The notes below the pieces were generated by a model. It saw only the letters and a program-made list of their open reading frames with translations, was not told the DNA's origin and made no database searches. This document shows, piece after piece, positions 3,632 through 40,200 of a stretch of DNA of 40,200 bases. Each line of letters starts with the position of its first letter. Positions within the stretch are counted from its first letter, which is position 1. Source of the DNA: Perkinsus chesapeaki (Eukaryota > Perkinsozoa > Perkinsida > Perkinsidae). The stretch lies in the NCBI GenBank assembly GCA_013115145.1, contig JAAPAO010000316.1:1-40200 (forward strand). The letters run 5' to 3'. Position numbers and translations under genes: made by a program.

Positions 3632-6600
3632 TCAGCCATGCCGCCGCCGCCCTCCCAAACCGCAACCCTTTAATATTACATCCTCCGCAATATCGAAATC
3701 CACTGCTCTCCTCACACACTCTTTACCTATTAAACACAATACTGTCAGCACCCACATGAGAGTGGTTCCTACCAACATACAAGTCCACCTTTCCCGGTAA
3801 ACTACCAACATATCCAAAGTCAGCATCTGCCATCTCACCAGGACCATTCACTACACATCCCATAACAGCAATACGCAATCCAGAGAGATGTCCAGTTCTA
3901 AACAGGGATAGAGCTTCCAACTCAGCGCCTATATACTCTATCCTCAACCACACATAACAATGCCAGCCCCATTAAAGCTTATGAATCACGTTAAACGTGT
4001 TTTCTGCTATCAGCCAAATATATAATAACAGCAGCAATCAATCATTAGCCTTCTCCACCAAGCCTCTATTACTTCTTCCTTATCCTCTCTGTTGTATCCT
4101 GTATGTCAAATAATGTCCTACCACAGCTTGGACATGAGATAAATTCCGTCTTGCTTAAACGCATCCGAGAACCCTAAAACATCAACAACACCAATAATAA
4201 TAACAACAACGGGGAAGGCCTTTATATTGAATCATTATTGATGATACGACTATTATACAGTTACGTTAAAGCCAATCTCCGTCAAGCATACAAACTAACA
4301 AGTAAGTTCCACGCAAACGCATGTCGGACGTTTTACCCAACTGGAACGGAAAGGGACGTAGCGAATTCGACACGGAATGATCCAAAGTTGTGCAGCATCT
4401 CTCATCTATATTCGCACGATAGACTATAAAACTATATACCATCGAATTCGGCGGCGCTGAAGAGTCGTCGATCCTTCCTACTACCTGCATCAGGTTAAGA
4501 CTGAGCTCTCGAGACTCCTCGGTACTCAGACCATGGTCATCCCAAAACACACCATCTCCGAGGCCATCAACAAATAAGCCACCGAATTCCGAGGCACCAA
4601 GAATGACAGCTGCATCCGATCCTGGCTCTAAAACAAATAACACTTCCTACCAACCCTCAGCGACACCACTATAAGATGACACTTCTACCCATATTGCTCA
4701 GAACCGAGGGATCGAGTAAATCTAGCACACTCAAAACAGGATGAGCTACACCAATAAAAGCCTTGTTTCGATCTTTACGTGCTCTATTAAGCACATCCCT
4801 CCTCGATATTACAAGGATACGAAATCGATTAAACTACATACTATAATATCCAACTAGGCAGAGCGATAGTTCTAGTCCACTGTAACAGTTGTAGGATCCC
4901 ATCGATGATGATCAAACTCACCCGCATGAGATGATCCTTCTGGATAAGTAAACCACAAAAGGAGCGGCAATCTCGACTTCCGAACAGCCTTGGCGACTTG
5001 CCTTCCAGCGTGAACACGGCAAGATGACTCTGGCTTGAATATTAAAAATCGAACTGATGCCTGACAGAAACCTTCGAAGGACTGAGGATGCCTGTCATCA
5101 GAAGTGACAGTCTCAGCGTTGTGTAATAACCAACAACAACGTTCATGACCGAATACAACGTCTAACCCACTGATTGAAGAATTCACACTGGTGAGGTTTC
5201 CTCAACGAACTACCAAAGAGACTATCAGAGGTATAAATTATTATAACACGCCATACATTTGAGTGATATTCTACAACATGAACGGCGACGACACAAAAAC
5301 TGTCTACCAATTCGGCCGGCTACCAACGGTCCCTCCTACCTTATTAGAATGTTTAAGTATCTTCTCAACATCCTCCGCACTTCTAACAACACACGCGCAG
5401 CCACCAGCACGAGCCGGATTAACAGAATCCAATCCAGATGGATCCATCACCAACAACTGCCATACATACCGTCACTGCGCCACGAAATTCTCCACCCCTT
5501 ACCGTATTGCCAGGCATAATTTCCTTATCGCTCAGAATGACAGCGCCACTCGCTTGTATCGCTTCCAGTACTGGGATATCCCTTTCGCTGGCTTTGTCTA
5601 CCAGAACCACATCAACAGACGCAACGTCTTTCTGATAGCGACCGTCCTTCCGAAGCTTCAATCCTAGTCCAGTGGCTAAAACCCAACATCGTCATCAAAC
5701 AAATGATTGACCCTGGTTCGATCCCGGCACTACTCATATATTCCTTCATATTTTTCTTGGCTGCCTTTGGATCATATCGCAATAGCAAAGTGCCATCTTT
5801 GTGCAAAGGGGCCTGACAATGGAAACATCAGCAATCCACTGGATACCAACAATACCTCCATCAATGCAGGGAACAAGTAGTACAATTGAATATAAAGCGT
5901 ATTATTAATATTACTATGAAATACCAAGGATACTGCAGCACACTCCCCACTGATTTTGATACTCTAGCCTCGACTCTATCGACTTCAAAATTAAGAAGCA
6001 TAAAAGTAATTCTGCGCGCTCATCGATTTCACAAATCTCACAGCCAACTAGACAACACCACTTAGGTGTAGACTACTTTACCATTCATCATCATACTTGC
6101 AGATATCTGTGATTAATATCGATCCAGAAAGTATAGCATCGACATAGACCAGCCACATATCTTATAATGCTGCTGTTAGCGTACGCCTCAAAGACCATTG
6201 CGAGTGTCGATTCTACACACACCCGACTCCGCCGACCGCCCCACTGTATTACATCGATGGCACTAGTGTCAATCTCACGCCTCTCAAAATGATAGGGATT
6301 CACAATAGCAGCGGCAGCACCAGCTGGTGACAAACCCATACCGCTCTTTCCTACAATCTTAGCTGGTCTAGCTTCAAGAGAACTCTCATAGACATCACGT
6401 AACGCTGAGCACGGTCCAGCCTGACGCGAAGAAAAATGCCCAAACCGAGGATCGAACCCGGGACCTATGACTTACCTCATACCACGGATCTTCAGTAAGG
6501 CTAACTCGTACAGTGTCGCCTAAACCATCTTGCAGCAGTGCGCCAATACCAATACCAGACTTAATCTGATATTGAGATACAAAGTGGAACTCTGCTGAGA

Positions 6601-9529
6601 TGTTGGCGGACAAAACACAGTTGATGAACACCAACCGATACATTTATAAACTATACGATAATGATGAAAGCAAGAATTATAGAAAGCATTAAGATAAGGT
6701 ATACGCAGTAGAAATGCCAGCGAGTATGTAAACAAGAAATCAATGATATATCTATTCAGAATCACCATGATTGGGCAATTGAGGAGGACACATTAATCAA
6801 AAGGGATAATGAAAAGATAAGCCAAAGATATATTATTTGATATGAACAAATATTCATACACTACCCCTCCCCTCCACCACCAGCAGCAGCAGCAGTATTA
6901 CCCTTCCATCCGATCCTCCACCTGCCTCAGTAACCCCCAAATGAAGTGGATAATCCCAACCACGCTTCTAGAATAACAACATAAGAATGAATCTAATAAG
7001 TTGGGACTCACCTTCATCTCAGCAGCAAGTAGCCTATAAGCTGCCACCATGACACGCGTATTGGAGGACTGAGATAACAATACTACCTCAGACTACTTCA
7101 GCAATATTAAACTTGACAAGACGTCTGGATACTTCCTTACGGCCAACGACGGAATATGCAATAGGGATGAAAAAGCGACAAATTAGCACTAGTGATCTCG
7201 ATACCGACAACAGTCTTTTTGTCGAGGTAAAAAGCAGAGGAATTATTCCAATTCGACGCATGATCCAACCTCGAAAGCCAAACCACTGGTTGGCTACCAA
7301 AGCAGGTGTCTCGTAGTCACTATAACATACAAGATACAGATGTATGAACAATATAATAAATAATTCTGTGAAATAATACAGTAATTAAGTTTGTTTCAAT
7401 TGCTATGTAAAATATAGTATATATGATAAGATAATATCCAAACCTTATAAATTAACATAACCCTCACGCTTTACTACCTTCATACTAAATATGATATCAT
7501 GGAAGTCCAAAGCACGGCACATGTTACCAACCTCTAAAGCACTAGCCACCATACCCTACATGCACAATACCACCAATACACACTATCAATGCTACTACTA
7601 CCTCTGGCGTATCACCGTACTGGGTAAGGATACGCTCAGATAGACTGCCATGATTTACCCCAATCCTCATGCACTTTCCTTGGCGCTTTAAAGACTAATA
7701 TCAAGAGACAATGATAATATTATCATCCAAGAGAATGGCAAGTTTACATTAACTAGAGGCTCCAACTTCTCAAACATCTCTTCTTGCCACTGAGCGGCTA
7801 TCTCGGGAGTAACCTGACGAGGTAAATAATAGACCATATACGTAGGTGCATTCGACTTGAAATATTCGGGGAAATAGAGTAATTTTATAGCTACCAAACA
7901 ATCACAAACTTCTAAGTCCCTTTCTAGTGGAAATCCACATTCACCATGCGACCTTAGTACCGACCTAAGGCCAGCTAAAGCTATATAAGACAGCAACCAT
8001 AACCCTAATTGTTCCACCAATAACAATGGTCAAAAGTACACAATATTGCTACTCCAGTTGACCTACCTCAGTAACCTTCCCAAAAGTCTTCATTCCATCA
8101 ATAAAATTGCCTGGGTTAATACGTATCTTATCACACCCTTCAGCCGCTAACATAGCAACCTATTAATAACAACAACACTCATAGATACCATCCACGACCT
8201 TTGGCATTACCTTTGGCTTGAAATGTATATCAGCTACAATAGGTGTGGTATAACCATCCTTAAGCAGCTTATCTTTTATCAATTCTGAAAGACCAATATA
8301 ATCCACTAGACGTCACAACTCATATACTTGTGGCTCGGGCCTCCTTAATTCCTTGGACAGTTACACGAACTATATCAATACCAGCATCGGCACATCTGAC
8401 GGAAAGATGAGGAGTTGAAATGATATCACCTTCACTCACTTTTCTATCTGCTCTACGGTGGCATCAACGTCATCAGTACCTAGTTCGAAATATCCGAGCT
8501 TGAAGCGTGCATGATACGAACTAGCTTACTGCTATTCGTCATAGTCTGTAGAGCTAATCTGTGTTCACTTCCTACTGGGACATTTCCAACCTAATTCACT
8601 CCAGTTCGTACAATCTTTCCACCCTCTCCACCCACCATAACAGTTCGAGTCTTTCTGCGAACTGGATGATCGATCCCATCACAATAGGGAAGATCTTCGA
8701 CTGCCATAATCGGACCTGGACGACACACGTCTCTACCATACGTTAATCAAAATATCGAAGCCACGCCTGATTGAGCATTCCTTTTAACGCTATGCTCCTG
8801 CGTATCGAGCATGGGTCAACCTAAGATATTTCGCCACAGATCCAGAGAATCCACGAATTACAGTTTTTCATATAATCCTATTAAATCGTCGAAATATACC
8901 AACGCCTATTTTACCTGGATCAAATCGGCCCACTGCGCTCCTTGCTATTCCAGCAGCCCTCCGAGGCATCCTATCTTTGCTCTTCCTCCTGTGAACTCCA
9001 GCAGCCAATAATGACGCCAAAGCAATACCGACCGCCAGGATGCCCAGGGGCTGGTAGTCGGTCAGGGAGGTGGGGGATGATGAAGAGTGAGAGGCCCTGG
9101 CAGTTACACTAGAACGGAGGAGAGTTGATGATCTGAAAAGGAGGTGAACTTGATGCAAAGAGGAGAGAACGGACGCAGTGAAATACGGTACAGCAATTAT
9201 GATAGACAAAATACTATATAACAACAAGTCAAAATATAAACGATAGAATTGGTAAGATTTATACCCAATCTAATACTAATAATAATCACCTAAACAGCCT
9301 ACTAATGAAGAAATAGAATAGGAAATATATTACGTGCAACATTGACAGTTCTATCAGCAGATGCTGAGAGCAATAAAGGTAAAGATCGATCTCAGCCTTA
9401 CTTGATGGCTCCTTGATTATTAGTTGATGGCAAAAGAAAGGCTATTGTATAGTTAACCATAACCATTACAGCGATTGCCGCTGCTAACAGTATTGTTAAA
9501 CCACCAAGAGTGTTATGACGCTTAACCAT
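3632..9529 (-). CDS. ispG: IspG/GcpE, 4-hydroxy-3-methylbut-2-enyl diphosphate synthase, long form, multi-exon
   Basis: Penultimate [4Fe-4S] enzyme of the MEP isoprenoid pathway. Conserved stretches in order on the minus strand are [128 protein letters not shown], and [20 protein letters not shown]. The last two carry the cluster-binding cysteines (CPSC and GC). The insertion between the TIM barrel and the Fe-S domain marks the plant/apicomplexan long form. Exons I could fix: 9402-9529, 8915-9132, 4689-? , 4485-4627, 4073-4173, 3773-3897, 3632-3726. Exon 1 begins [10 protein letters not shown]. The N-terminus gives a signal-like hydrophobic stretch, a Ser/Thr/Arg-rich segment, a second hydrophobic segment ([17 protein letters not shown]) and then HRRKSK, which suggests plastid import. 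Two of its introns (5676-5733 and 6421-6475) carry tRNA-like modules. Confidence 0.92.
5676..5733 (-). repeat. IspG intron with tRNA 3'-end module, antisense
   Basis: 58 bp GT-AG intron. Splicing joins EYM to [14 protein letters not shown] in frame (phase 1). The plus strand reads CCTGGTTCGATCCCGGCA, a T-arm and B-box, so the module lies antisense to the gene, close to the splice donor. The expected acceptor-strand end would reach into the preceding exon. Confidence 0.8.
6421..6475 (-). repeat. IspG intron with tRNA 3'-end module, sense
   Basis: 55 bp intron. Splicing joins DPWYE to [10 protein letters not shown] (phase 0). In the gene direction it holds a variable loop AGGTC, a T-arm CCGGGTTCGATCCTCGG, the seven-base acceptor strand TTTGGGC, discriminator A and TTTTT: a textbook tRNA 3' end. 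The T-run serves as the pyrimidine tract before the final CAG. Confidence 0.88.
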
Positions 9530-11341: not shown

Positions 11342-11724
11342 ACGTACAGACTACGACAGGGCTGACAGCAGTACCGGTCGTTCCACTAGCCCAGCCCCGG
11401 TACTAATCGACCGACTACCACTCTTGCCGAAGGATTCATCAACAATTTGAGTTACTATATAATCGGTGTAGCTTGACCTTTGAAATGTGTCTTAGTAACG
11501 GCTGAACACGAGTATTATGTATCCCAGAAACATCCTATTGGGTGGTATGTTCCACTTTTGGTATTTTGGAAAAACTACGACAGCATTAAATTTGATTGGC
11601 ATCTCAGAACTCCTCCTCGTCTCCTTCAGAATGAGGGGTGTATCTTCGTAGAATAGATCGAGCTCGCCTCGCCGCAGCACGTCGAAGCATAGTTATTGAA
11701 TGCTCTGAAAATGACAAGACGCTA

Positions 11725-14700
11725 TCACATTGACTTCCTCATCTTCTTACGGTCATTGGCTTTCTCTACACGACCATGGTAATGGCGACCACCGAGCTTA
11801 CGGCTGCGCTTGGCAATCTTGGCTACAGCCTTACCAGCTGGATTGGTGTGCAACCACTCCTGAGAATGAAAGGTTCTATTGCTAGAAATGACAGGCGTCT
11901 ACCTCCACGAGAGGGTTCGCATAGTCATAACCGACATCGGCAATCGTTTGGTATCTAATTAATGACACTGCGATTAATTGCTGCAACTGAGCAACATACT
12001 TGTGGAAATCAAGCAGAGTAAACTGGTCAATCGGTGGACGAAGTGCAAGGTCTATTTGCCGAGACCGGGCATCGTTCTTGGCGCTATCCGAGATGTACAT
12101 CAAACCTGCAAAGATAATCTTAATAATGCAGCCCGACGCAATAGAATAGGGTAATGCGTGTTTTCGCTCGCGGCTAAAAATTTGCGCGCCAAGATATCAA
12201 TAGATAGGCATGAAACGGTTGATCGATTTAATATCATTGTACTACCCATGTTTAATATTTCAAGTTAATATCAATATTGAGTGACAAATAGAAAGTATAC
12301 AAATTATTTTATTTCACCGTTTCGGGCTGCAGTCGGATTAGCTCGGACTCACGTTCTTGAATATCTCCTAGAGATGGTGGGCTCAACTGATTGCCTCTGC
12401 GAAGGCAACGGTCAACGCCCATAAATGAGGATGCCGCTCGAACCTGCCAAGGAGTAACCATTACAGGAAATGCGTCGTGACTTGTTAATGAAATAGGTAA
12501 AGCGATCTCACAGAGCTACACCTTTTCCCGTGCAAGTTTGACAAATGTCCAGACAATGTCAATGTCTTCCCCAAAAATGACAATAAGTATTCATGTTTGA
12601 CACAAGTGGAAATTATCGGGTCCAAGCTTGACAATACGCAATCATCTTTGACACACCCTTGATTTATCGGGTCCAAGTTTGACAGCATTTTCACCAAGAA
12701 TGACAATAAACAGCCAAGTTTGACAATACGCGCCCAAGTTTAGCACAAGTAAACCCGAAACTGCAGCCTACCAAAGCTGGAACGCCAGACAGTGAATCGC
12801 CATAATCTGAACGAATCGGGTTGAACTCTGACGCCACATCAACACTTATAACCACGCCTGAAAATGATGAGCTTAAAAGGTGAGGTGAAAGATACTTACG
12901 AGCTCCCATGGCACGAAGGTGCTCCACAGGGAAGTTATTAACATAGGCACCGTCAACTAAGAGGCTGCCTGGCTGATTCTCATCTGGCATAGGGGGAATC
13001 TGAAAAACAAATCTCCGGGTAGGAGATTGCAAGGAGCTTACAAATCCCGCCAGACTCATAGATGCTCTCACAGCTTTCCAGAGTGCACCAGAATCGTGGA
13101 CTCTCTCACGGAAGCTGACTATATCAGTGGAGATGCAAATAAATGGCAACCATAAATCCTCAATTCGAACCTAACCATAATGTGCCACGATAGAAGCATG
13201 CTGCTGCGGACCTGAGCGAAGGCTCTCTGAAGTGCATTGTTGAGCAAATGCCCTTTAAGGTAGGCAGTGGAAGGGAATGTGAGATCGGTTAGGACGCTCA
13301 TCAATGTGAAGGACTCTTTGAAAACCTGACGATGAAATGCGTAACATACCTTTATTGTGATGTACTGAAGGGCATTGCAAAACGTCGCAAGTGACCTTGA
13401 CAGCTCAGAAATCACAAAGTGTTCATAAATAAGGTATAGGGATAATCATAAAGCTTTTCGGTAAAGCTCAGTGTGAGCCAGGACGATATGAATACCAAGT
13501 GCTACCAGGAGCGGGTTCTAGTTTTGTGTGACAGTAGGAACGCTTCGAGATATGACTCATGTAGCCGTAGTAAATGGTATATTTCCAATCGAATACACTT
13601 AACAAGGTTTATGCGTTAGTTTCGCCATTCCAGGCCGCATCTTGACCATATCACACAGTGAGAGACGTTCCTCTCACCCGTCCAACTAGATTCATCATGG
13701 TCTTATAGCTCCCTGTCATCGCAAATACAGCAGCAACAAAACTGCCCATACTAACACCGGCTATCATATCAACGGGAACGCCATGCTCTGTCAGCGAACG
13801 AACAACCTGAGAAGGGGCACGGGTTCAATTCCTGGTGAAGGCGTTATAAAAACTCGCTTACCCCAAAGTGAGCACATCCTCTAGCTCCACCTCCACCAAG
13901 CATCAAAGCTACAGCTCGTCCACTGAGGGTCCTAGCCACATCGAAAATGATGAATCCAATGCCTGTAATTCCCACCTTGCTATTCTTTCCCAATCTCTAT
14001 GCTCCATGGGCCCAGAGCGGATGTGATGACAAGCGCTCAACCACGGGCGAACCTGCATTAGAATAAAACGACGAGGGTACCAGAAGGCTGCCGCTGCACC
14101 TCCATGAACTTCCTCGTTGCCGGTTGCTCATCCAGCCCTGCTTCTTTAATTGCATGCTTGATGTAGTTGCGCAAACCAGGCTTAAGGAGATCACGATAAG
14201 GCGCTGCGGTATTGGCAAACTCCCGCCTGATGAGAACTGATCGGTGGTAGTGCGAGACGCTTACCTGCTTTCCCTGTGGAGCAGCAAAAGCTCAGTCCTG
14301 GAATTTGGCGACACGCACACTCTCTCCGCAAATGTCAAACTAGTGTCACCATCGAACCATGATAACAACAAAACCTGAGACGAAAATATTCTCGCGCGCC
14401 ACATAATTGTCCTCACAGTATCAGCTTGCTTAGCACACAGTTTGGTCCACTCGCTTATAGTAGCGCCATCACCGCAGGGGTCAGCCTCGTACACAACAAC
14501 ATCTGTGCGCTCCTCCAGTTCACCGAGGGCCACTGCTCGTTGGGCATATCTTCTACCCTGCCAACGGCATGCAGTGGTGTAACGAGCATCCTCCTACTAG
14601 GAGATCCACCAGCGCCTTGCGACCGCTGATGTCCGCGGAAACCTCATCTTCATGTGTAGCCAAATAACGATCGTTGCCACTGTACATGTAGGTACGGTCG

Positions 14701-17700
14701 ATATGTGTTGCTGAGATACCAACCATACGAAGGGAGTCCACAAGTGACATGCAGGCTGCATGAAGGGGCACCTGAGAGATGGATCGTATGCTGCAAAGGA
14801 TAAGCAACTTTTGCTTCATTACAAATACAGTGTAAACCGAACGGTAATGACATTATAAGAGTTATTTTCGGTCGTGATGATTCTAAACTTAGTCTTTATA
14901 TTCGTCTAAAGGGACACGTTACGACAAAAAACAGATTTGCGTAACAGTTTGGGTCACACCGTACATCTCACTAATAGGTACATGAAGATAGTAGTCCTGT
15001 GCTCAACCAGATATGCAAGAGAATGCCATCACGATAACTAGACATTTTTTGAACTCCCCGGATGGCGTACGCCGACCGCTCGGCGAAATTGTTGGCGGTT
15101 GTTCAACTAACAGGCATATCAATACTAGTTGATCATTGCTAATTGATCAGCATCAGCTGCGAGCAGAAATGTTGACAAATGTTGTAGCCGACAAGTGGAA
15201 GTATTCAACAGTTGCAGTATTTGCCTGCTATTGATCTCCAAGATGCCTACATCAGTTGACAGTCCCATCACACAAATGGTTGTAGGTGTTCTATTAGATG
15301 ATGTCAGAGAGTCGGGAATCCTTGTGGATGTCTGAAGCAGCAGCAGCATCCATGACTCATACGATGCAATAAAGCTGAGCTCACAATCTCAGCAGTTCCG
15401 CTTCCATAGTTTAGGGTTCCTAAATGCTGTCTCTGCACTTCGTCATTTGAAGAGGAGGAAGATAATATTGACGACTGCCTACTAGCGATCCATGCCGCGA
15501 AGTTGAGTAGAGCTCGGGGGCATTCGGCAACTGAGTAGCCATACCAAGCAGCAACAAGACGGAGATTCTCAGACCCTACCCATCAAGTTAAGCATCATAT
15601 CGGTAACACAGCAGAGCTCCGAGTCCCTTACAGCGACCACGTTTTCGGTGTAGCTAAGCGAATGGGTAGTAGTGGCATCACATCTCAAAACATGCTTACT
15701 CTTCCCTTGCCAAGCATTCTCTCTCGCCGATCACGTCACCTCGCACATAGGTCCGTAGAATCGGTCTTACCCTCTTCTTACGGCCATAGCGCTCTGATGT
15801 CTTTGGATCGCCGACCGAAACTAGTCGACCGGATAAGACCTGAGCAGCGAACCGAGTAACCCGGGTTCGAACCTCGGGCCAGGCACTTTCTGCGCACTTA
15901 CAATATAGAAGCCGTGAGGAGTATCTCCCGCGTTGAACAGATGCCTATAAAGAAGCAATGATCCACAACGGAGTCACGAATGCTGAGAGTCTTACTTAGA
16001 CGCCTCCAAAGGCCTCCACTCGATACTGGCATCAATCCTATGCAAAAGGTCGTTGGTTCGACCCGCGGTGGTGGCAAACATCGACAGCATGCTAACAGGG
16101 GCAATCGATTGGACATAAGCAATCTGAAGTGAGAAAATTAGGGAAATGCTGTTGGCTCTTGCTCGGCCGATCGAGCGCAGAAATACGTTCACCAAACGCC
16201 CCCAGTAAATACGCTCATCAATACTGAGGTTCGCGAAGACCGTCCGAAATTCTCTCGAGAATTCTCCTCAACACTTTCTATCGCTGTCGGATACTGTTGG
16301 AATATATACGTTTGCGTGGGAAAATTTGAGCGAATCCCGAAATTTCTGAAAAATTTTCCATATCACTGTACTGTGAGTTTCGTAAAGCGCTATATATTTT
16401 CGTGGCTATCAGATATGATAGGAACATTCATACAAACACGCGGTAAAGAATTATGAGAAGGTTCTGTACTTTCCATCTTTCTGCAACGAGGAGTTACTTT
16501 TCTGTGGCGATTCGGTGATGAAGTCGCGTAGGAGAGCCAAGGTAGAACGACCGAAACCCCAACGCTCTTTACGGATTTGAGCGACTGCTTGCGTATATTT
16601 CAAGAGTCCATAGTAAGATGATTACGAATCAAATTGAACGCTAAACATTAACGTGATGATATTAGATTGTAATACCAATTTATCTTCAAGAATACTACTC
16701 ATTAAAATGTTCTATAACAATACTGTGGAATGCATAGTATAATAAACAAATAAGTGAGAATATTTGCCACTCACAGCTTCCGGTGGTATCGACACCGCAG
16801 TAACCTCCGACATAGTTGTGCTCCTCCAGTCATTAGCTGTTGATGCGCCCATAGTGGACGACAATACACCACTGATGATCAACAGTAATGCTACCACTAA
16901 CTGCTTAACCTACAACATCTCTCCAGGCTGAGGCCTGTATACTTCCCGAGGAGTCCCGTCTGATAGGGACATAGTTACCGAGACATCACCGGAGACCAGA
17001 ACATATAATGGCGAGTGAGAACCTGCCATACCGAGAATGCCCGGAATGCACTGAGCCCAAAAGATCGGCTCGGAGTTCTTTCCGATAAAAGTGCTTATCA
17101 ACTACTGTGCTGAAACGTCGCGCCACTCAGCACGAAGAGTGGCCGAAAATGTCATTGTCGAGTTAGAGCGGGGCAAGCTCGATTTATGAGTAATCGAATA
17201 TGGAGAATTCGATAGAAAAGGAATTAGCTCGAAATTCGACGTACTTATCGATATTTTTGCCCGCCCAGTCCCGCGCATCTCTAGATGTCGCGTACTGTAG
17301 ACAATGGGAAATACTGTACTATCAAGTGTTTCACGTGGTAAACCTTACTCTTAGCTCGAGCCTCCGCCTCCCTTCTGCCCAACTCTGCAGCCTCATCATC
17401 ATCATCGATGTCGTCTACTGATGATGCTGATGTCGTGCTGCTGTCAGAGGTTTGGACTTCAGGAGTCATTTGTCGACCGCTATGGTAGGTGCCGAATCTA
17501 ATAAAACAGCTGATGCAGTAGATAGAACGCAATGTATCGTTTATCCCGCTACATTGCAGATTTCAACGCTACTATTTCCAACGAAGAATTGGTAACTCCG
17601 ATATCGACTTACCTGATTCCACCGTGAGCTTCTCGAGTCGACTGGAGATACTCCCGAACTTCTTGCCGCAACTCATCCCGATCTGGTCCGCCGGGTATCT

Positions 17701-19729
17701 GAAAGCCAGCGTTATTGGGTTATTTCAGATGCATCACTGACCATAGCGTAAGCGGCAATCTCTATAGGGTCCTTAGTGTCGAGAATCTCCTTGGGTACCT
17801 GTGAACGGTTGGGCGTGGGTTCGATCCCCGGGACCGGCAATTCTTACAAATAAATTCTGGGCTCCACTGGAGTTCTTTCTATAAAGCTCATCGGTAAGGC
17901 CAAATAAGCGTGTCAAAGTCGGCAAGATAATCCTTTGGAGACGAAGATTGAGAATTTGGAACAAGTGGAGCATGCTGCGAGCATGGCCACTATCAGTCAA
18001 TAGAAAACGGATGTCCCGGACAGAAAGGGACATACACGTAACGGTATCTAAGGTTGAAGCAAGAAAGATACAAAATAGGTCGAGGTCAGATACTCACCAG
18101 TCATTGCAACAGCTGTGGATACATGAGGGACAGTCGTTGTGTCATCCAATGATAGTAGCATGAACATCAAACCAACTGCAGCGCAACCTGCCGGGACCTG
18201 AGACAAAACGCGTATATGAAATTGCCCTCGAAACAGTGGGGGAAGTTCAAAATATTCAGTTTCGAAACAGAGAATAGATTTTTCTTAAAAAGACGACTTT
18301 GTAGACTTCAAAAAACAGAAAGATGATTTTCTCTCCGATCCACTTTCCAGTAAGTACAGTGTTGAACTATCGGCCGCTCTTCTCTAACTGAGGTCCTCAC
18401 CGATTCGCCATCGAGTTAAACTCCTTATTGCGCACTGCGCAATGCGCAGGGACGAAAAAACTACCAGATTTCCCACAAATCTTATCAGAATTTCCTTGCC
18501 TCGCCAACATGTGATGGATATACATTCTCCAAATTATTTCAGTTATATATCACGTTTTTGCGACCAGCTCAGGCAGACTGGTGACCCTGTACCCCAAATT
18601 CAAATAGCTGTATAGTATTCCGACACTCAACAAGGTCGCCCTTACCGTATATGAGGAATGCTTCCCGCGTGTTGTCACCGAAACCTCACCACTGCGAACA
18701 ATAAGAATCTTATCACGAGGAGCACCTTGACGGAAAAATGCCTCACCCGAGATTTGAACCTGCGTGCATCTACCCTCTTGAAAGAGCTTCTCTCCCTTTT
18801 TGAATGTAACCAAATGCACATGTTTCAGCACTGCCATCAACGTGTTTGACGGCAGCATTGAAAACGCCGAGCATTTCCGGAGGAATTCAGCACGCAGCTG
18901 ATAAATAAGACAGGTTAAATTCGGACGCCTCCCTCGGGCTACTTTGGTTGGCTCATCAGGTTCATCATCACTATAAAAACCGGCACCGTCAGTATCACTG
19001 ACGAACATGTCAACGCCGTGGTCTGAGTGGGAGGGCATGCCTTTCGAATTGACTTGCCTTTTGCCACCTACCAGTACTTTGCCTTCTCAATTTTGGCTGC
19101 TCAACATTCTCATCCTCCTCAACTGATTCTCCTTCAGGATCAACGTATCTTATATCATTGGGAACTAGGGAATGTTAGTCTATATTAGGGCTATCTTATC
19201 CGTAATGTAGATAATAATAATGATATATAATAGTATTAGGGAACTGTCTTGTGTTAATCATATTACAATGCTTAACTGGGCAATAAGGAAGTCAATGAAG
19301 ACTTTCTCAGTAGAACAACTCACTTTTACTGACTGACCTCATTATCACTCAGTAGAAGCGTGTGGTTTGTCAAGAATATATGGCGACCGACAGCAAGAAG
19401 ATACGTATCGGAACGGACACGAGTGGCACACGTTGGGCTCATCTTTCGTGAATAATGAACATAAACAGCGATTTGAATTTCCTCACTGAGCTCTAACTCC
19501 TACCGCTCCTTACTCTTGATTGGCATGCAGGGATCTCCGTTCAACCGTTTCGCCCTGTTCCCCTCTGTTCCTTCTCTCTCTATCAACCCAATAATTAAGA
19601 CCAAAATACGTAGCCACAACAATAGCTACAGCCTAATGGAGACTTCAAACGGCAGCAGGTGCAGTGCTTCCTTACCAACATCACTTTAACACTAAACAGG
19701 AATCTAAGTGCTCCAGCGATGGCGCTCAT
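11725..19729 (-). CDS. NTE/PNPLA6-7-like lysophospholipase: membrane anchor, three cNMP-binding-like domains, patatin domain
   Basis: Exon 1 (19676-19729) begins MSAIAGALRFLFSVKVML and exon 2 (19514-19632) continues AVAIVVATYFGLNYWVDRER, giving an N-terminal transmembrane anchor. cNMP-like domain 1 reads KKGEKLFQEGAPRDK then ILIVRSGEVSVT (about 18.6-18.9 kb), domain 2 LYVLVSGDVSVT (about 17.0 kb), and domain 3 LFNAGDTPHGFYIVLSGRLV (about 15.8-15.95 kb). The patatin domain has the oxyanion loop GGGGARGCAHFG, nucleophile elbow GVSMG (about 13.75 kb) and dyad motif DGAYVNNFPVEHLRAMGA (about 12.9 kb), then YGDSLSG, LMYISDSAKNDARSR and RPPIDQF, all NTE hallmarks. The last exon ends in a Lys/Arg-rich tail (KRSRKLGGRHYHGRV) and a TGA at 11725. 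Known members hydrolyse lysophosphatidylcholine at the ER. Many introns are 48-62 bp and at least five carry tRNA-like modules. Confidence 0.9.
12485..12771 (-). repeat. NTE intron with interspersed AAGTTTGACA repeats
   Basis: Donor follows SLSGVPAL; downstream coding resumes at FPVMVTPWQV (left border approximate). The plus strand holds about eight copies or near copies of AAGYTTGACA-type decamers, near 12533, 12594, 12623, 12646, 12674, 12695, 12715 and 12735. Two copies share the longer TTATCGGGTCCAAG prefix. It is a degenerate internal repeat, not coding in the right frame. Confidence 0.7.
13119..13211 (-). repeat. NTE intron with weak B-box-like element
   Basis: 93 bp intron between ALQRAFAQ and a frame containing SFRERVHDSG. 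In the gene direction it contains TTAGGTTCGAATTG, matching the B-box but lacking a paired T-stem. Perhaps a decayed member of the tRNA-module family. Confidence 0.35.
13807..13861 (-). repeat. NTE intron with tRNA 3'-end module, antisense
   Basis: 55 bp intron just after the oxyanion motif GGGGARGCAHFG; splicing continues with VVRSLTEHGVPVDM. Plus strand: CACGGGTTCAATTCCTGG, acceptor strand TGAAGGC, discriminator G, then TTATAAAAA. Confidence 0.85.
15840..15901 (-). repeat. NTE intron with tRNA 3'-end module, antisense
   Basis: 62 bp intron inside cNMP-like domain 3; splicing joins GDTPHGFYI to VLSGRLVSV. Plus strand: CCGGGTTCGAACCTCGG (five-pair T-stem, one G-T), acceptor strand GCCAGGC, discriminator A, then CTTTCTG. 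Confidence 0.88.
16038..16096 (-). repeat. NTE intron with tRNA 3'-end module, antisense; borders approximate
   Basis: Likely intron between YVQSIAP and IDASIEWRPLEAS. Plus strand: AAGGTCGTTGGTTCGACC, then CGCGG, acceptor strand TGGTGGC and A. Just upstream, CCT-ATGCAAA-AGG could be a reduced anticodon arm with anticodon GCA. The reading frame does not close perfectly with the simplest donor, so the splice sites may be off by a base. Confidence 0.65.
16295..16370. repeat. AT-rich element, copy 1 of an inverted dispersed pair
   Basis: Begins TGTTGGAATATATA and holds an internal inverted pair GGAAAATTT / AAATTTTCC. The complement of 19835-19948 has the same 14-mer followed by a similar GGAAAAT ... 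AATTTTTCC arrangement. It lies between coding parts of the NTE gene. Confidence 0.5.
17799..17847 (-). repeat. NTE intron with tRNA 3'-end module, antisense
   Basis: 49 bp intron; splicing joins NLF to VPKEILDTKDPIEIAAYA (phase 0). Plus strand: GTGGGTTCGATCCCCGG, acceptor strand GACCGGC, discriminator A, ATTCTTAC. The complement of that end forms the splice donor GTAAGAAT. Confidence 0.9.
18427..18443. repeat. Perfect 17-nt odd palindrome in NTE intron
   Basis: ATTGCGCA-C-TGCGCAAT, followed at once by another TGCGCA. Lies in non-coding sequence of the NTE gene. Confidence 0.85.
18726..18773 (-). repeat. NTE in-frame intron with tRNA 3'-end module, sense
   Basis: 48 bp (a multiple of three, no stop), so the frame stays open and an unspliced product would carry 16 extra residues containing TQVQISGEAFF. 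Removing it restores the cNMP-domain motif KLFQEGAPRDKI. Gene direction: AGGTTCAAATCTCGG, acceptor strand GTGAGGC, discriminator A, TTTTTC. Confidence 0.88.
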
Positions 19730-21248: not shown

Positions 21249-22519
21249 TTACCCTTCCTTATCAGCTCCTTCCTTTATATAAGCCTCCAAGGCTCCTAAA
21301 GCTCGCTCTAGTTGTGAAGACAAGTCCTGCAGCCTTCTATTAAGTTCTGGCGGAAGCTCTCGTGAGAGGTATGCTGATGGTAGGGGCAATGCTGGAGCAC
21401 TGGGGGTAGCGTTGTATGATCCGAACTGAACATGAAGATGCTCAGAAATATGACAAAACCAACGAGAGAGAATGATACTATTGGATCCTAGGGGTGAAAA
21501 CAAGTAGTTACGAATGCTATTCAATTAGGCTGGCGAGCTCCGAAAATATCTTGGATTTTATCGGCAGTAAAGAATGAGTATCTGGGGTATCCTATGATCC
21601 GAAGGAAATATGGTATTATTAATAACCCTGTTGGCCTCACCGTTCCCACTGATCCTCTATTAGCCTGCGACCTTTCCAATTGAGACCATCGCTGGCTAGC
21701 ATAGCTCGCCACCCGTCTGTGTAAATCATTCACTGCCGACTCCAAATCAGACAATGCAGCTTGCGCTGTGGATAGCAATCTAATGACACAGCTTTGCAGA
21801 GGCGCAGGTTCGATCCCGGGCACGAGCATTTCTTACGCTTGTATATGCCCGGCATCCTGCTCCCTCTGTGCTACTGCTGAACGGATAGAGTCTACTTTTG
21901 GAGCGATCTGCCCTCTTAACTGAGAACGAGCAAAATTGTCCACGTGGAATAGATGAACTAGGAAACCCAAAGCTTTGGGTTCAGCAGCTCTACTATGGCG
22001 ATATTGATCCCGAAGCACTTCAGTGTGTTCGACCTCGCTAGTGATTTCCATCACTTTAATTTCTGCATTTCTAGCACCTCGTAATTGATTGCATGACAAT
22101 CGATATAATATAAGAAAGCAAATTCAACGCTCATTTTTCTCACGCGCATCATAAATAGTACGAGTAGCCGGGATTCATCCAGCCTCGCAGGGCTATAGCC
22201 TCAGCGCAGGAGTTGGTATATGCTCCTATGAATCGGATGTGATATTGTAATATAAATAATACGTATAATGCTGATGAATGTAATGATATCGACACATAAT
22301 CGTAGCAGCCACCGATGCTCCTCCACTCCTTCAGCTTTCTTTTACAAAGACCGGCCAAGTTAGAAATATATCGCATGCTATCGGTATCCTCACCATATCC
22401 TTAATTTGGTCCAATTTCTTTTGGTTATTATCAATCTCATTATGGACTTGTTCCACCTGCTGCTTGAACTGACCATTCACAGCTCCAGCTTGACGTAAGG
22501 TAACAGCAGATGTTGACAT
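21249..22519 (-). CDS. Coiled-coil protein, possibly a Nup58/Nup54-type nucleoporin
   Basis: Exon 1 (22394-22519) begins MSTSAVTLRQ and ends with a charged helix QVHNEIDNNQKKLDQIKDM. The next clear exon (from 21837 up to about 22080) reads NAEIKVMEITSEVEHTEVL and ends QREQDAGHIQ. Across the 21780-21836 intron it continues LLSTAQAALSDLESAVNDL. The last exon contains SRELPPELNRRLQDLSSQLE and ends GADKEG with a stop at 21249. Heptad-like spacing suggests coiled coil throughout. Short helices with a central FLVHLFHVDNFARSQLR segment loosely recall the Nup58/Nup54 coiled-coil core, but no FG repeats are seen, so this is a guess. The 22150-22390 stretch may hide a further small exon. Confidence 0.55.
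21780..21836 (-). repeat. Coiled-coil gene intron with tRNA 3'-end module, antisense
   Basis: 57 bp intron; splicing joins GHIQ-A to LLSTAQAALSD (phase 2). Plus strand: GCAGGTTCGATCCCGGG, acceptor strand CACGAGC, discriminator A, TTTCTTAC. The complement gives the donor GTAAGAAATGC. Confidence 0.9.
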
Positions 22520-24399: not shown

Positions 24400-25912
24400 C
24401 AAACCTTACCCTTTTACAGGGTTCTCAATTTCAGCACACTCTCAACACAGCCATGATGAAGATAGAACTTTGCTACAAGCGTGGAAGAAACACATTTTGA
24501 AACTTTTTGTACTCACCCTCATCAAATAGCGAAAGCGGAGATCAGCACACGTAACTCCTAGCCGCCGCATCTTCTTCGCCACACTTTGGCCAATCCTGTA
24601 ACAAAACTAGGTGATCAATAAGCTCTGTTCTTGAACATTATTTCATGAAGTGAAACATGGCGGACCTCTCAGCTGTCTTGTTCCCCTTTCTTTTGCATTT
24701 TCTTATACCAACTCTTCCAGCATTTGTCAAAGATACTGTTCGTCTATTCCATGACTTGTTTATAACCGTAGCCTGCCAAAATGCCAATAATTAATATATT
24801 AGTTCAGAAAAGTTTCTTATTCATTTATCTATAGTTCTATTCTGATATTCAATAAGCTATTTCATTTTCAACAGCTCATTCTATTTCCACATTCACTGAT
24901 ACATATTATATTCTATATTATATAGCGAGTGTAATGTTGGGATAAAAATCCACATGTTATCCAATTCGTGTGGTCGTGATTCAGAGATGAATCTTTGCCA
25001 CGTTTCACTGTCACAAGAAACTTCAACAGATTTTAATCACGTATGTTTAATATATAAATACCGTCAATACAAGTCAATATGATGGCCAATAAATGAAGTT
25101 CAAGTGAGCAGGCCTAGCTGAGATCGTTGAGCTAAGGCTAAAACCACCAACGTGTACTTATGGACACAACGAAACTAAGGTACTAAGCGTAATCATAGCA
25201 AAGGGGTCACATGGTGGATGGCTCACCTGACAATTATTCTTGGTACCATAAACCACGATTTCAAATACATGGTCTGGTTCGAATATGCGACCATTCTGAT
25301 TCCTGATAAATAAGACTGGGAATAGCAATGCCTTCTGTAGGTTAATCAGCCAAGCTATTTTTCACGATGTTCGAAGGAGAGACGAGATGTAGGACTCTTG
25401 AGTGATAAACAAATACTCATAAAATTAGATTGCTTTTCGCTAAATAAGGAATTTTCCAAAATTGCGAGTTGTCATGTGCGTACGCCTGTGTGTATGGAAG
25501 TAATAAAGCAGATGGTCCCAGGAAGAACACATTTGATATTCTTTTCTGATTTAAGAACAAATTTCTTGAAGTTATATTCTCTGTATCACCGCGAGGCAGA
25601 ATCCAAGTGCCCCAATCAGGCACGCGTTCGATTCCCGAGTAACACATTTCTTCAACGCTATAAGGCTCAACCAGGTTAACCACGATTGCCTCACCTCTCA
25701 ATATGGTAAAACTCAGGTCGTCCTCCACCAAGCTTGAAGTTCATAAAATTACCCTAAAAAGGGCCACCAATTGAAGCCTTGTCGAGAGGGAAGATCAGCC
25801 TCACGGGGAACTTTCTCCTCTCTTTTTTTGACATCGCATTCAACTTCAATTTATGTGCCTTCTCCCGAGCCTCCTTAATGGATTGCAACGCCTCCTCGGC
25901 GCTCTTGCTCAT
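24400..25912 (-). CDS. Unrecognised multi-exon gene
   Basis: Probable start at 25912: MSKSAEEALQSIKEAREKA, a charged helix, then KERRKFP. Splicing adds GNFMNFKLGGGRPEFYHIER and, across the 25581-25694 intron, EYNFKKFVLKSEKNIKCVLP. Further exons read LFIRNQNGRIFEPDHVFEIV (about 25.24-25.33 kb, ending at a GTGAG donor) and GQSVAKKMRRLGVTCADLRF (about 24.51-24.6 kb, again ending at GTGAG). The 3' end is unresolved. I recognise no family. The 24.6-25.2 kb part is AT-rich and probably intronic. Confidence 0.5.
25581..25694 (-). repeat. Intron with tRNA 3'-end module, antisense
   Basis: 114 bp intron; splicing restores HIER-EYNFKKF. Plus strand: ACGCGTTCGATTCCCGA, acceptor strand GTAACAC, discriminator A, TTTCTT. 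Immediately before it, GTGCC-CCAATCA-GGCAC forms a stem of five pairs with a seven-base loop, the geometry of an anticodon arm. Confidence 0.75.
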
Positions 25913-27035: not shown

Positions 27036-28729
27036 CTACAATAGGATATACTTCTGTGTGACACAATACACTATAATACAAACTCACGTATTCTTCAGTA
27101 GCATGGCGATGGTCATCGGCCCGACTCCACCAGGGACCTATCAAAATGCCACACTCAGAACAAATCAGGTATCTTTCCTACCGGTGTTATATAAGAACAA
27201 TGCTCCTTCACCTCATCATAGTCCACATCACCAACTAAGCGATAACTGACAAAAAATAATGAATCACAGCGGAGCGAAGCATGAAAACTCACCCCGATTT
27301 CTTCGTAGAATCTTCGACGCTGTTAATGCCAACATCAATCACAACAGCCCCTTCCTTCACCCAGTCGCCTTTGATAAACTTAGCCCGACCTGATAGAAAA
27401 ACGACATGTGCCGGGATCGAACCCTCGATCTACCACCCTACCGATCGCCGCCACCACAATATCAGCTCTCCTCACCACTTCTGGAAGGTCCTTAGTCTTC
27501 GAGTGGCACACAGTAACCGTAGCGTTCTCATGGATCAACAGGAGTGCCACAGGCATGCCCTAAACCACAGCTTCGCTCCGCTAAAATCCTGACCAGCATA
27601 CCACAATATTGCTCCTTCCGACCACCACAGCATTCTTGCCAGCCATCTCTATCTTATATCGCCTCAGCAGCTCTATCACTCCATACCTAACAGAGCCGTG
27701 TGGCGATGAGGTCGGCGTGGTAAGGGTACGGCGTGCAGGAGATGGCCTTCGGTTCCACTCCCTTCAAAGCCAATGCACCAATGTTGGCAGGGTCAAAACC
27801 GTCAACGTCTTTTTCAACTGAGGAATAACAGAAATTTTTAAAGCACCGAACAGCCGGTCTACTCATTATTCTGCCAAGGACCTTCTGTTCGCTGATATGT
27901 GGCGGGAGTGGCAATTGTACCAGTATACCGTGGACCTCAGGATCAGCGTTGAACCGGGACACGGCGGCCAAAACTTCCTCCTGAGCATACAGAAGCACTA
28001 CAGTGAGTTCGCGTTTGTTAGGCGGCAAGTTGATTGAAATTGAACAAACCACGTTGAAATGATTAACATAAGAACCTATCACTATTACACTGTCTAATTA
28101 AAACAGAGAAATCATATATTATAGTATGTCTCAGAGCTCATATTGAATGACCGAGTAGAGGGAATCCAGCAAAGAAGAAAGGACACATCCATCAGCCACA
28201 CCTCAGAGCAAGTGTCCGGCAAAAGCTTTTCTCGGCTGATGAAGCCAACCTCTGCAGCTGCCTTCTTCTTCATTCTCACATAGGTGGCGGAATCAGGCCT
28301 TTCACCGACCAAGATGACGGCGATGCCGGGAGTGACACCATGGCTGGCCTGAAATAGATTACAAAGTGCTCGAAACAAACATCGTGAATGATATAGATAT
28401 ATATTGTATGTCACATACGGACCTTTGATAACCAAAGATCGCCACGATATCATTTTTGAAGTTGAGGCAGAATACGTTCAAGAATGAACCCTTCTGCCAT
28501 TAGCAAAACAAAGAAGGATGAAGCTGTTGTATGCCCACGTGTGACGAGACGAAGATTATGGGATTGGGGAACCTATTATAAACTTCCCAGTGACGACTCC
28601 AGAGGCACGTATTTCGAGATGCCACATGTAGCGACGGACCGAACTCACCTGCATCTCCTCTCCAAGCTGCTTCAACTCCGCTCTCACCTCCTCGGCAACT
28701 TTCTTGCCATCGATGATTTGATAAGTCAT
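27036..28729 (-). CDS. folD: FolD-type methylenetetrahydrofolate dehydrogenase/cyclohydrolase
   Basis: Bifunctional one-carbon enzyme converting 5,10-methylene-THF to 10-formyl-THF. Exons: 28649-28729 ([20 protein letters not shown]), 28202-28348 ([20 protein letters not shown] then KKKAA, with the catalytic Tyr and Lys), 27863-27980 ([18 protein letters not shown]), 27730-27817 ([17 protein letters not shown]), 27602-27686 ([20 protein letters not shown] then VVGRSNIV, the NAD(P) site), 27442-27559 ([20 protein letters not shown]), 27293-27389 ([19 protein letters not shown]), 27182-27245 ([21 protein letters not shown]), 27088-27137 ([17 protein letters not shown]), and a short last exon ending at a TAG at 27036 (less certain). 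All main junctions restore FolD motifs. Introns are mostly 42-52 bp, and three carry repeat modules. Confidence 0.93.
27246..27292 (-). repeat. FolD intron with 12-mer module GCGGAGCGAAGC, antisense
   Basis: 47 bp intron joining DSTKKSG to YRLVGDVD. The plus strand carries GCGGAGCGAAGC at 27269-27280, opposite to the copies at 27570 and 29955. Confidence 0.85.
27390..27441 (-). repeat. FolD intron with tRNA 3'-end module, sense
   Basis: 52 bp intron joining VVAAIG to RAKFIKGDW. Gene direction: GAGGGTTCGATCCCGGC, acceptor strand ACATGTC, discriminator G, TTTTTC, then the final CAG. Before it, GATC-GGTAGGGTGGTA-GATC resembles a tRNA D-arm with an A-box-like loop. Confidence 0.9.
27560..27601 (-). 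repeat. FolD intron with 12-mer module, sense
   Basis: 42 bp intron joining GRSNIV to [13 protein letters not shown]. Minus strand carries GCGGAGCGAAGC (27570-27581). Confidence 0.85.
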
Positions 28730-34446: not shown

Positions 34447-34746
34447 ATTGAAGAGAAAGACAATATAACGAAATTATCTAGCGACTATGCTATATGTCTA
34501 CACGCCTTGAAAAGGATTCGATGCTATTGGGAACATTCCTGGCTTCTTACCCTTCTAGGCAACGATACAACTGGTATACTCATGTTAGTTGGCAATGCAG
34601 TCAAACAGGATGTCAAATTATGTAAAGTACGTATTAAGGAAGTCTTTGGTTCCCCAAGAGGGACACTCCTTTGACGGGTCGGGCTACCCGTAACGAGCGT
34701 CCTGACGAACCAGCAGTGCAACCGAATACTAGTAGTATTATCAAAC

Positions 34747-38590: not shown

Positions 38591-38607
38591 TAGACTCATA
38601 AGCTGGC

Positions 38608-38634
38608 GAAGAAGAAGAAGAAGAAGAAGAAGAA
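38608..38634. repeat. (GAA)9 microsatellite in the HDAC 5' flank
   Basis: Nine uninterrupted GAA units ending about 18 bp upstream of the HDAC start codon (on the coding strand, TTC repeats). Confidence 0.97.
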
Positions 38635-38811
38635 GGGGATAGAGGAATAGGAATTAGGACAAGGACGAAGAGACGATAAAATATACCTGGTGAAGCCGAG
38701 CTCCATCCTTGGGCCCCTAGGAGATACCAAACCACACACATCGCTCACGAGCCCAACAGCAACACAACTGAGTAAGCACGTCAGTAAAAATAACATGTAA
38801 GGTTGAAAACG

Positions 38812-40200
38812 TCACGAAGCGAACAACTCTTTCGTAAACGCCGGATGAGCTTGCGCATCTCCTGTATCCACGACCATAACTGTTGCTGAACCGGTGATGC
38901 CTCCCAGTATTTCCCGCACCACTGATTCTATTTCCTGCGCGCCACTAAATGCTTCCTTCACCAATGTCTGTATGCTCGCTCCATCAATTGACTCAGACAA
39001 TGGATCGAAGGTACCTTCAAACAAGAAGAATTTGACATGTCGTAAAGTTGTTGGGAGAAAATAAGGAGCAGCCAAAAAGACCCCGTAAACGAGGGGCTCT
39101 ATACGAGGCAGCAAGCCTTCTATGATGATTGGATCACATTACTGACAATAAATGTAAATTACATCTACTACAAATCCCATACGAATTACATCTTATTAAT
39201 AAGAACAACCCATACTCGATGGTAAGGTGCCAGTGTTCAACATCTGCGATACCAACAAGTACATATATTACTGGCTGGCACCCGATTGATTCAGAAAGGT
39301 AGTGAGATGTTGTCAATGGAAGACTCTTACAAATCAATACAATCCAATTCCGTCCCTTTATTCGAGGTATTATTCCAATATCTGGCATGCAGCTCATCCT
39401 TGGTATCTCCCCCTCCTTTACAATACCAAAGCATGGATCCTAACCAACAACATGTACTACCTGGGAATCGAACCTGTGCCTACTTTAAGATGAAAGCACC
39501 CCATTCCCTTCTCCACCATTACACGTCGTCCACTGTACAGCCCTCTGTCCGATGCCAAATCGGTGACGTCCAACTCTCCTTCCTCATCACAAACGTACCT
39601 TCGTTACAAAAACTGAAAGCGGTGAGTCCGCTCCAAAAGCGTGACGAGGTCATTCAACCAGAGGTTCCCGATGGTCACGATTTCATTTTTGTTCATACTT
39701 TAAACCGGTTTCTTTGAGTAGGTTTAGATACGACTAAGAACTACTCTTAAGAAATGAAAATGTGGCGGATTCCGTTTGCTAAAATGAACACACATATGCC
39801 TTCATTAGGCAGACTAGGATGTTCACATATAAACGTCAAACTGGATGTGTTTCACCCACAGTCAATACCCTCTCGTCATTCTACTGGGGCGATTCTCAGA
39901 CTTCTCATACGCATAACGTTCTAATTACATCCTACCCGTCCCTACTATTACATAGCATAACTTCCCTTTCCCATTATCCCCGTTATAATCCCTTCCCTCC
40001 CCTCTGCTGCCCTAACCATCATCATCATACTACATCCAGCACCATCAGTAGCCTTCTTAGAGCTCTTCCTCCCCGGTGTTAACACATCCATCCAAGCCAA
40101 CCTCTCTGTATCATAGAATGCAGCCAATAAAGGGTTACTCCACCATTCCGCTGCTTTCACTACAGCATCATAGCTCATATCCTCATCTCTATGAGGGACC
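38812..40200 (-). CDS. Unrecognised gene, 5' end beyond the window
   Basis: The minus-strand frame is open at the right edge: MSYDAVVKAAEWWSNPLLAA, then FYDTERLAWMDVLTPG. A later exon reads GELDVTDLASDRGLYSGRR and MVEKGMGCFHLK. Across the 44 bp intron 39440-39483 it continues DPCFGIVKEGEIPRM. The last exon contains LVYGVFLAAPYFLPTTLRHV and TVMVVDTGDAQAHPAFTKEL, with a stop at 38812. The GVFLAAPYFLP stretch could be a membrane segment. No family recognised; exons between 39.1 and 39.4 kb and between 39.6 and 39.95 kb are unresolved. Confidence 0.5.
39440..39483 (-). repeat. Intron with tRNA 3'-end module, sense
   Basis: 44 bp intron joining GMGCFHLK to DPCFGIVKEGE. Gene direction: CACAGGTTCGATTCCCAG, G, acceptor strand GTAGTAC, discriminator A, TGTTG, then TTAG. 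T-stem pairing is poor but the spacing is the same as in the other copies. Confidence 0.78.

What the first reader, a model, noticed from the sequence alone, without database searches (positions are those of the whole stretch)
5676..39483. A family of short introns built from tRNA 3' ends (candidate tRNA-derived introners)
At least eleven introns in six or more unrelated genes (IspG 5676-5733, 6421-6475; NTE 13807-13861, 15840-15901, 16038-16096, 17799-17847, 18726-18773; coiled-coil gene 21780-21836; unknown gene 25581-25694; FolD 27390-27441; right-edge gene 39440-39483) contain GGTTCRANNCC, the T-loop/B-box. The layout after it is constant: five bases of T-stem, seven bases of acceptor strand, one discriminator (mostly A), then usually a T-rich run. 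Acceptor strands differ (TTTGGGC, GCCAGGC, GACCGGC, CACGAGC, GTGAGGC, ACATGTC and others), as if each copy derived from a different tRNA or drifted while keeping tRNA spacing. Most of these introns are only 44-62 bp, so the module is about half of the intron. Introners are known in several protists and fungi; one made from tRNA 3' halves is not something I know to be described.
Basis: partly seen in the sequence, partly recalled or inferred. Interest (0 to 1): 0.93.

Follow-up and report, generated by a model that had tools for sequence, protein, structure and literature searches.

The report
Introns carrying a tRNA B-box module
In a shellfish parasite related to dinoflagellates, many very short gene interruptions, in either orientation, are largely made of a piece that looks like the tail end of a transfer-RNA gene, and one part of that piece has been kept nearly unchanged while the rest has drifted, which suggests an old wave of intron gain and a hidden job for the piece.

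Summary
The window is Perkinsus chesapeaki. The motif is real: GGTTCRANNCC occurs 2,432 times in the 35.4-Mb genome against 566 for the reversed pattern; with GCATTTT within 30 bases there are 180, of which 159 have one fixed spacing. The module sits in introns in both orientations, so a copied tRNA-3'-end-like element is the natural source. But 'each copy from a different tRNA' fails: the two T-stem strands match no better than shuffled strands. Copies have drifted almost to saturation except for the B-box and, more weakly, GGCA-TTTT. C56, a CpG base, is never T in the full layout (0 against 159), while neighbouring CpGs have decayed. I find no target-site duplication, no A-box and no empty site. 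Best explanation: old tRNA-3'-end-derived introner-like insertions whose B-box is still held by selection on the DNA, most simply as TFIIIC (ETC-like) sites. Mobility and TFIIIC binding are inferred, not shown. The held papers searched listed no description of it.

The parts
5676..5733 (-). IspG intron; module antisense to the gene; the donor lies inside the acceptor part of the module
   Evidence: own annotated protein P0122 identical over 49 aa across the junction
6421..6475 (-). IspG intron, module in sense
   Evidence: P0122 identical over 50 aa across the junction
13807..13861 (-). NTE intron, module antisense
   Evidence: P. olseni NTE P0121 continuous, 90% over 50 aa
15840..15901 (-). 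NTE intron, module antisense; core palindromic, so it matches on both strands
   Evidence: P0121 80% over 40 aa across the junction
17799..17847 (-). NTE intron, module antisense
   Evidence: P0121 50% over 50 aa across the junction, no gap; the alignment that allows long introns chose another path here
18726..18773 (-). NTE intron, module in sense; 48 nt and stop-free, absent from the P. olseni protein
   Evidence: P0121 86% over 49 aa when removed, 16-residue gap when kept; also found
27390..27441 (-). FolD intron, module in sense
   Evidence: gene model; solved relative 4a26 aligns gap-free over the junction
   Evidence: open frame only when removed; no homologue tested
39440..39483 (-). 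probable intron of the right-edge gene, module in sense
   Evidence: open frame only when removed; no homologue tested
   Evidence: score 19; no open frame after removal
   Evidence: score 31; candidate intron, not confirmed by the later scoring
   Evidence: score 36.5; intron not established
   Evidence: P0121 contains its translation; module score only 16

Best explanation
About a thousand or more sites of the P. chesapeaki genome, at least a large share of them short spliceosomal introns, descend from a small dispersed element made of the 3' end of a tRNA gene: end of variable loop, T-arm, acceptor strand, discriminator A, Pol III T-run. The element landed in genes in either orientation and became most of a new 45-60 nt intron, with splice sites recruited at or near its ends. 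The family is old: most neutral positions have drifted. The B-box (tRNA positions 52-62), and more weakly GGCA-TTTT, is still held by selection on the DNA itself, because copies in both orientations keep it. The simplest holder is TFIIIC: these would be intronic extra-TFIIIC (ETC)-like sites. Shown: the motif, its layout, residence in seven protein-verified introns, both orientations, and constraint focused on the B-box. Inferred: common origin by insertion, intron creation by that insertion, TFIIIC as the binder.
For: Genome counts and spacing. Protein-verified introns. Rule-chosen ordinary introns of IspG and NTE fall in two classes, 18 of 38-53 nt and 13 of 175-448 nt, none between; the seven verified module introns are 48-62 nt (median 55), just above the short class and too short for a short intron plus a 32-nt insert. 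Both orientations share the core columns: 40 sense, 27 antisense, 33 undecided of 100, two palindromic cores being counted on both strands. Constraint: in 212 kb, of 31 copies found without using positions 52-58, 27 have an exact GGTTCRA, 4 have one mismatch, 0 have more; shuffles gave none. C56T occurs 0 times against 159 with C, whereas at 50-51 CG is kept in 20 of 71 and TG or CA stands in 39. Published: C56G and G57C cut yeast TFIIIC binding 370- and 56-fold (passage of PMC11811891); ETC sites carry conserved, extended B-boxes without Pol III (passage of PMC12409998). Weak residual kinship between copies: mean nearest neighbour 5.6 of 32 mismatches against 6.3 for independent columns.
Against: No target-site duplication (69 copies) and no empty-site paralogue (26 introns), so insertion itself is unseen. 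TAG/TAC are not enriched over TAA/TAT just after the T-run (55 against 63), so splice sites are not a fixed part of the unit. GGCA-TTTT is not explained by B-box binding alone. 35 of 89 copies lack a near canonical donor plus acceptor; some may be outside introns. No A-box upstream (7 of 88, random 8.8%), so no ordinary Pol III promoter. No protein binding was tested, nor whether this genome has TFIIIC. The constraint could act on source copies instead, if insertions are young and sources diverse.
Confidence: 0.42

Rival explanations
1. Active or recently active introner family: a tRNA-derived, SINE-like non-autonomous element keeps inserting. The B-box and terminator are conserved because only transcribable sources spread, and there is no function in the intron.
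For: Tight core; both orientations; some near-copies (18 of 71 within 4 mismatches of another, about 6 expected); a roughly 390-bp dispersed repeat with the same module and aligned parts that start at different 5' points exists.
Against: 93 of the 100 listed copies are different (96 of them counted); no duplications; no A-box; neutral positions close to random, which would need about as many sources as copies.
Confidence: 0.25
2. Each intron was made from the 3' end of a different real tRNA.
For: Free positions have tRNA-like composition (65 is C or G in 94 of 96, 60 is C or T in 95 of 96).
Against: T-stem strands do not pair beyond shuffling; acceptors are far more diverse than a tRNA set; the GGCA ending is absent from the tRNA genes seen (an incomplete set); Rfam gives no tRNA match in the window.
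Confidence: 0.05
3. A DNA-binding motif that arose in pre-existing introns, by convergence or by short gene conversion, without intron gain.
For: Splice sites lie at variable distances; constraint acts irrespective of orientation.
Against: About 20 conserved positions over 32 bp with exact spacing is too much for convergence in about a thousand copies; the verified module introns are not short introns plus a 32-nt insert.
Confidence: 0.15
4. Ordinary tRNA genes, pseudogenes or chance B-boxes.
For: Real tRNA genes are among the B-box hits (62 found); 16038-16096 is a chance hit in coding sequence.
Against: No 5' half and no fold in the window copies; counts far above control.
Confidence: 0.02

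Closest known systems
Introners (Gozashti et al. 2022, PMC9860276)
   Same: A repeated sequence forming most of many introns of unrelated genes, in both orientations, in an aquatic protist
   Different: Copies share about 20 positions, not whole-intron similarity; no TSD or TIR seen; tRNA-like core under constraint. The main text has no occurrence of Perkins-, tRNA or SINE; its screen needs BLAST similarity reaching near both intron ends, which this family would probably fail. Its supplements were not seen.
Extra-TFIIIC (ETC) sites
   Same: B-box without a Pol III gene; over 1,800 with extended B-box in human (passage of PMC12409998); 44.6% of C. elegans extra-TFIIIC sites overlap repeats, nearly all the tRNA-pseudogene-like CeRep3, and the sites are over-represented in introns (passages of PMC6950938)
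   Different: Here the site is most of the intron, with a T-run at tRNA spacing; no binding data. C. elegans sites have both boxes.
Amoebophrya introner elements (PMC7789003)
   Same: Repeated introns in a relative of dinoflagellates
   Different: Those have inverted and direct repeats and are a subset of non-canonical introns (passages); these are GT-AG and no flanking direct repeats were found
tRNA-derived SINEs
   Same: B-box, T-run, dispersed
   Different: No A-box or conserved body at the intron modules; the 390-bp repeat of this genome may be one

Membership tests
Introner | similar sequence in many introns of unrelated genes | tested here: met
   seven introns of three genes verified; genome-wide copies with splice signals near (54 of 89 against 20% of random places)
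Introner | similarity extends over the whole intron | tested here: not met
   conservation fades beyond positions 44 and 78; splice sites at variable distance
Introner | recent insertion: presence or absence between strains or paralogues | tested here: inconclusive
   joined flanks of 26 introns find only themselves at E 0.001; no other Perkinsus DNA at hand
Introner | TSD or TIR (DNA-type families) | tested here: not met
   direct repeats at the shuffled level in 69 copies; inverted ends only looked for by eye; not all known introners have either
ETC site | conserved, extended B-box without A-box | tested here: met
ETC site | TFIIIC occupancy without TFIIIB or Pol III | not testable with these tools
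   needs binding data
tRNA gene | folds as tRNA, both boxes | tested here: not met
   no ARAGORN or Rfam tRNA match in the window; T-stem unpaired
tRNA-derived SINE | A and B boxes plus body and 3' tail | tested here: not met
   no A-box enrichment upstream and no conserved body in 88 copies

The most novel reading that the evidence does not exclude
A burst of intron gain from tRNA-gene 3' ends seeded a compact protist genome with about a thousand or more intronic TFIIIC sites that are now kept by selection: introns recruited as carriers of a Pol III-type chromosome-organising signal.
Probability: 0.28. Interest if true: 0.9.

Novelty: new variant of a known kind. Interest (0 to 1): 0.72.

Why it matters
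It would give a source of new introns that whole-intron similarity screens are likely to miss, and a case where intron sequence is conserved for a DNA-level function instead of for splicing. Presence or absence of these introns among Perkinsus species is directly testable with genomes that, as the protein records of P. olseni and P. marinus imply, exist.

Tried and rejected
Rejected: folded tRNA remnants (no covariation); a different tRNA per copy; an intact Pol III promoter (no A-box); reverse splicing of intron RNA as the spread route (both orientations); chimeric tRNA halves joined at the T-loop. The last idea came from zero linkage between the left and right halves. I dropped it because that set held copies chosen by pattern; in the redone set linkage within the right half is weaker (7 of 28 pairs above z 3, left-right 2 of 40), and much of it comes from two right-hand classes.

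Led nowhere: own-genome 18S search (not completed); empty-site search; TSD search; first gene models (over-joined; one search timed out); Rfam on ten loci, only sub-threshold matches.

Weak points: one search had no control. One search gave one: 55 of 110 copies pass score 10 against 18.6% of random places; 32 of 110 pass 15 against 6.6%. The score matrix was trained on copies with GTTCRA; removes that circularity for positions 52-58 only. Two of its 31 copies (in L051 and L052) are neighbours of each other that had been chosen by pattern. R57, C61 and C62 are fixed by the search pattern, so they are no evidence there. The sets include copies chosen by pattern. The intron-length comparison used 14 ordinary introns that I picked from an aligner capped at 130 nt; redid it by rule with a 450-nt cap and shows a second, long class.
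Full report
WHAT GENOME. The intron-less ABC-transporter frame at 464-3358 (-) matches FOL47_005725 of Perkinsus chesapeaki at 97%, and that record's longest contig is 40,200 bases, the window's own length. IspG of the window is FOL47_005726. The genome held (G000) has 35,393,606 bases in 884 contigs. Perkinsus is intron-rich: 72 of 104 genes with introns, most introns under 100 bp (passage of PMC3101222).

IS THE MOTIF REAL. Yes. In the window there are 10 exact GGTTCRANNCC against 0.46 in shuffles. In the genome there are 2,432 against 566 for the reversed pattern; at least 62 real tRNA genes are among the possible contributors. With GCA after exactly 8 bases there are 419 against 6; with GCATTTT 159 against 0. 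When 0 to 30 bases are allowed before GCATTTT the total is 180, so 159 of 180 sit at the tRNA spacing. From 419 less 6, and the share of such exact copies in the list (9 of 31), I estimate roughly 1,400 copies, with a wide error (about 900 to 2,900). In 100.2 kb (window plus six 10-kb stretches) 17 non-tRNA places score 24 or more, 11 of them in the 40.2-kb window, so the window is richer than the rest.

ARE THEY INTRONS. Junction tests against annotated proteins confirm 5676-5733 and 6421-6475 (own IspG P0122) and 13807-13861, 15840-15901, 17799-17847 and 18726-18773 (P. olseni NTE P0121) (spliced alignments agree in part: each finds some of these introns, and chose a long-intron path at 5676-5733 and 17799-17847). 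FolD 27390-27441 is confirmed by a solved relative. 16038-16096 is coding: P0121 contains its translation. 21780-21836 and 39440-39483 are probable; 25581-25694 is unsupported. The annotated proteins are predictions, not RNA evidence; P. olseni proteins show that the segment is absent from the protein there, not whether its gene has an intron. Elsewhere in the genome, 54 of 89 copies have a near canonical donor plus acceptor against 20% of random places, and frame-aware scoring gives 32 of 110 above 15 against 6.6% of random places. Some copies may therefore lie outside introns. Of 100 copies, 40 score as sense, 27 as antisense, 33 undecided, with two palindromic cores counted on both strands.

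IS THE MODULE THE INTRON. The seven verified module introns are 48-62 nt (median 55). By rule, 31 ordinary introns of IspG and NTE fall in two classes: 18 of 38-53 nt and 13 of 175-448 nt. My first comparison had seen only the short class, because the aligner was capped at 130 nt. The module introns lie just above the short class; a short intron plus a 32-nt insert would be about 70-85 nt. So the module is most of the intron. Splice sites are not at a fixed place: right after the T-run, TAG or TAC is no commoner than TAA or TAT (55 against 63). In 5676-5733 the donor lies inside the acceptor part of the module.

IS IT FROM A tRNA. The layout fits positions 44-77 of a tRNA gene: AGGTC-like end of the variable loop, C48, T-stem, TTCRA loop, Y60, C61, seven acceptor bases, discriminator A73, then T's. 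The window copies are not tRNAs: no ARAGORN or Rfam tRNA match. The T-stem does not covary: in 89 copies 49-65 pairs in 27 (35 expected from shuffling), 50-64 in 67 (68.5), 51-63 in 42 (44.5); 71 less selected copies agree. Positions 66-69 have 1.8-2.0 bits of entropy, and 92 of 96 copies are distinct (93 of the 100 rows listed, four of which I left out).

AGE AND CONSTRAINT. Copies are close to saturated: mean nearest-neighbour distance 5.6 of 32 against 6.3 with independent columns, so only a weak trace of kinship is left (5.2 against 6.1, overstated it because it included copies chosen by pattern). Yet the B-box has not drifted. In 212 kb, scoring every position except 52-58, 31 places pass 16; 27 have an exact GGTTCRA, 4 have one mismatch, none has two or more; four shuffles give no such place. 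Two of the 31 were neighbours that had been pattern-chosen; without them it is 25 and 4 of 29. Below that score (9 to 16) eight places have an exact core, two one mismatch and two two mismatches. The sharpest test is C56, the C of a CpG. Other places that I infer to have been CpG in the ancestor have decayed: at 50-51, CG 20, CA 28, TG 11 of 71; at 63-64, CG 23, TG 13, CA 10, GG 18 of 71. G57A occurs in 8 of 96. C56T with the full layout occurs 0 times in the genome against 159 with C. Copies of both orientations keep the same columns, so the constraint acts on DNA, or on source DNA before insertion.

WHAT HOLDS IT. C56 and G57 are bases whose change costs yeast TFIIIC 370- and 56-fold in binding (passage of PMC11811891). 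TFIIIC binds B-boxes without Pol III genes at ETC sites, over 1,800 in human, with barrier or insulator roles (passages of PMC12409998); in C. elegans 44.6% of such sites overlap repeats, nearly all tRNA-pseudogene-like, and the sites are over-represented in introns (passages of PMC6950938). The modules have no A-box (7 of 88 against 8.8% of random places), as expected of ETC-like sites. That TFIIIC binds here is inference; I did not look for its subunits in this genome. The conserved GGCA-TTTT is not explained by B-box binding alone; it may be the older trace of the tRNA end.

HOW IT SPREAD. Both orientations argue against reverse splicing of intron RNA. No flanking duplications are seen (69 copies at the shuffled level), no inverted ends by eye, and the joined flanks of 26 introns match only themselves in the genome. 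If the insertions are old, lost duplications are expected. A possible relative is a dispersed repeat of about 390 bp in eight loci, 76-95% identical between pairs, with the module and, in seven of eight, a perfect T-stem (GTGGG/CCCAC) inside it; the aligned parts start at different 5' points. The intron at 18726-18773 ends with CATTTTTCCGTCAAG, as in copy L083 of that repeat. Whether the introns come from it is open.

KNOWN OR NEW. Closest kinds are introners and ETC sites. The largest introner survey that I know has no occurrence of Perkins-, tRNA or SINE in its main text (I saw its abstract and opening, sections 7, 8 and 15, and search passages; not its supplements). Its screen needs BLAST similarity near both intron ends. 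Searches for introner with tRNA, tRNA-derived with intron gain, Perkinsus with introner, P. chesapeaki with intron, introners, SINE with new introns, Perkinsus transposable elements, P. marinus introns, TFIIIC with ETC sites and introns, and Perkinsus with intron gain listed no title or abstract opening that describes this; apart from the papers named here I saw only the listings, some of them cut at the number asked for. Most subscription papers, among them the P. chesapeaki genome paper that I recall, are not held.

VERDICT. The introner reading is likely but unproven, the 'different tRNA each' reading is wrong, and the new point is the strict, orientation-free preservation of the B-box in old, otherwise drifted introns.

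Noticed in passing
L075, L076, L077, L078, L079, L082, L083, L084, around the middle of each: A dispersed repeat of about 390 bp, 76-95% identical between pairs, with a tRNA-3'-end-like stretch inside and copies of different 5' extent; possibly a SINE.
   Followed up: partly
G000 contigs C440 and C328 (L012, L016, L017, L025, L027): Clusters of nearly identical tRNA-Arg(TCT) genes within a few kb, on both strands in C440.
   Followed up: no
L097 and L098 (contigs C34 and C267): A nearly identical stretch on two contigs, with the module in both: recent duplicate or second haplotype.
   Followed up: no
window 16038-16096: A GTTCGACC stretch that looks like a module but codes for protein in NTE; a useful negative example for motif-only searches.
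   Followed up: yes
window 18726-18773: This intron is 48 nt and has no stop in frame, so its retention would add 16 residues to NTE.
   Followed up: no
window 3600-8900 and 11500-19600: Introns of IspG and NTE fall in two length classes, 38-53 nt and 175-448 nt, with none between among the 31 that pass the rule.
   Followed up: no
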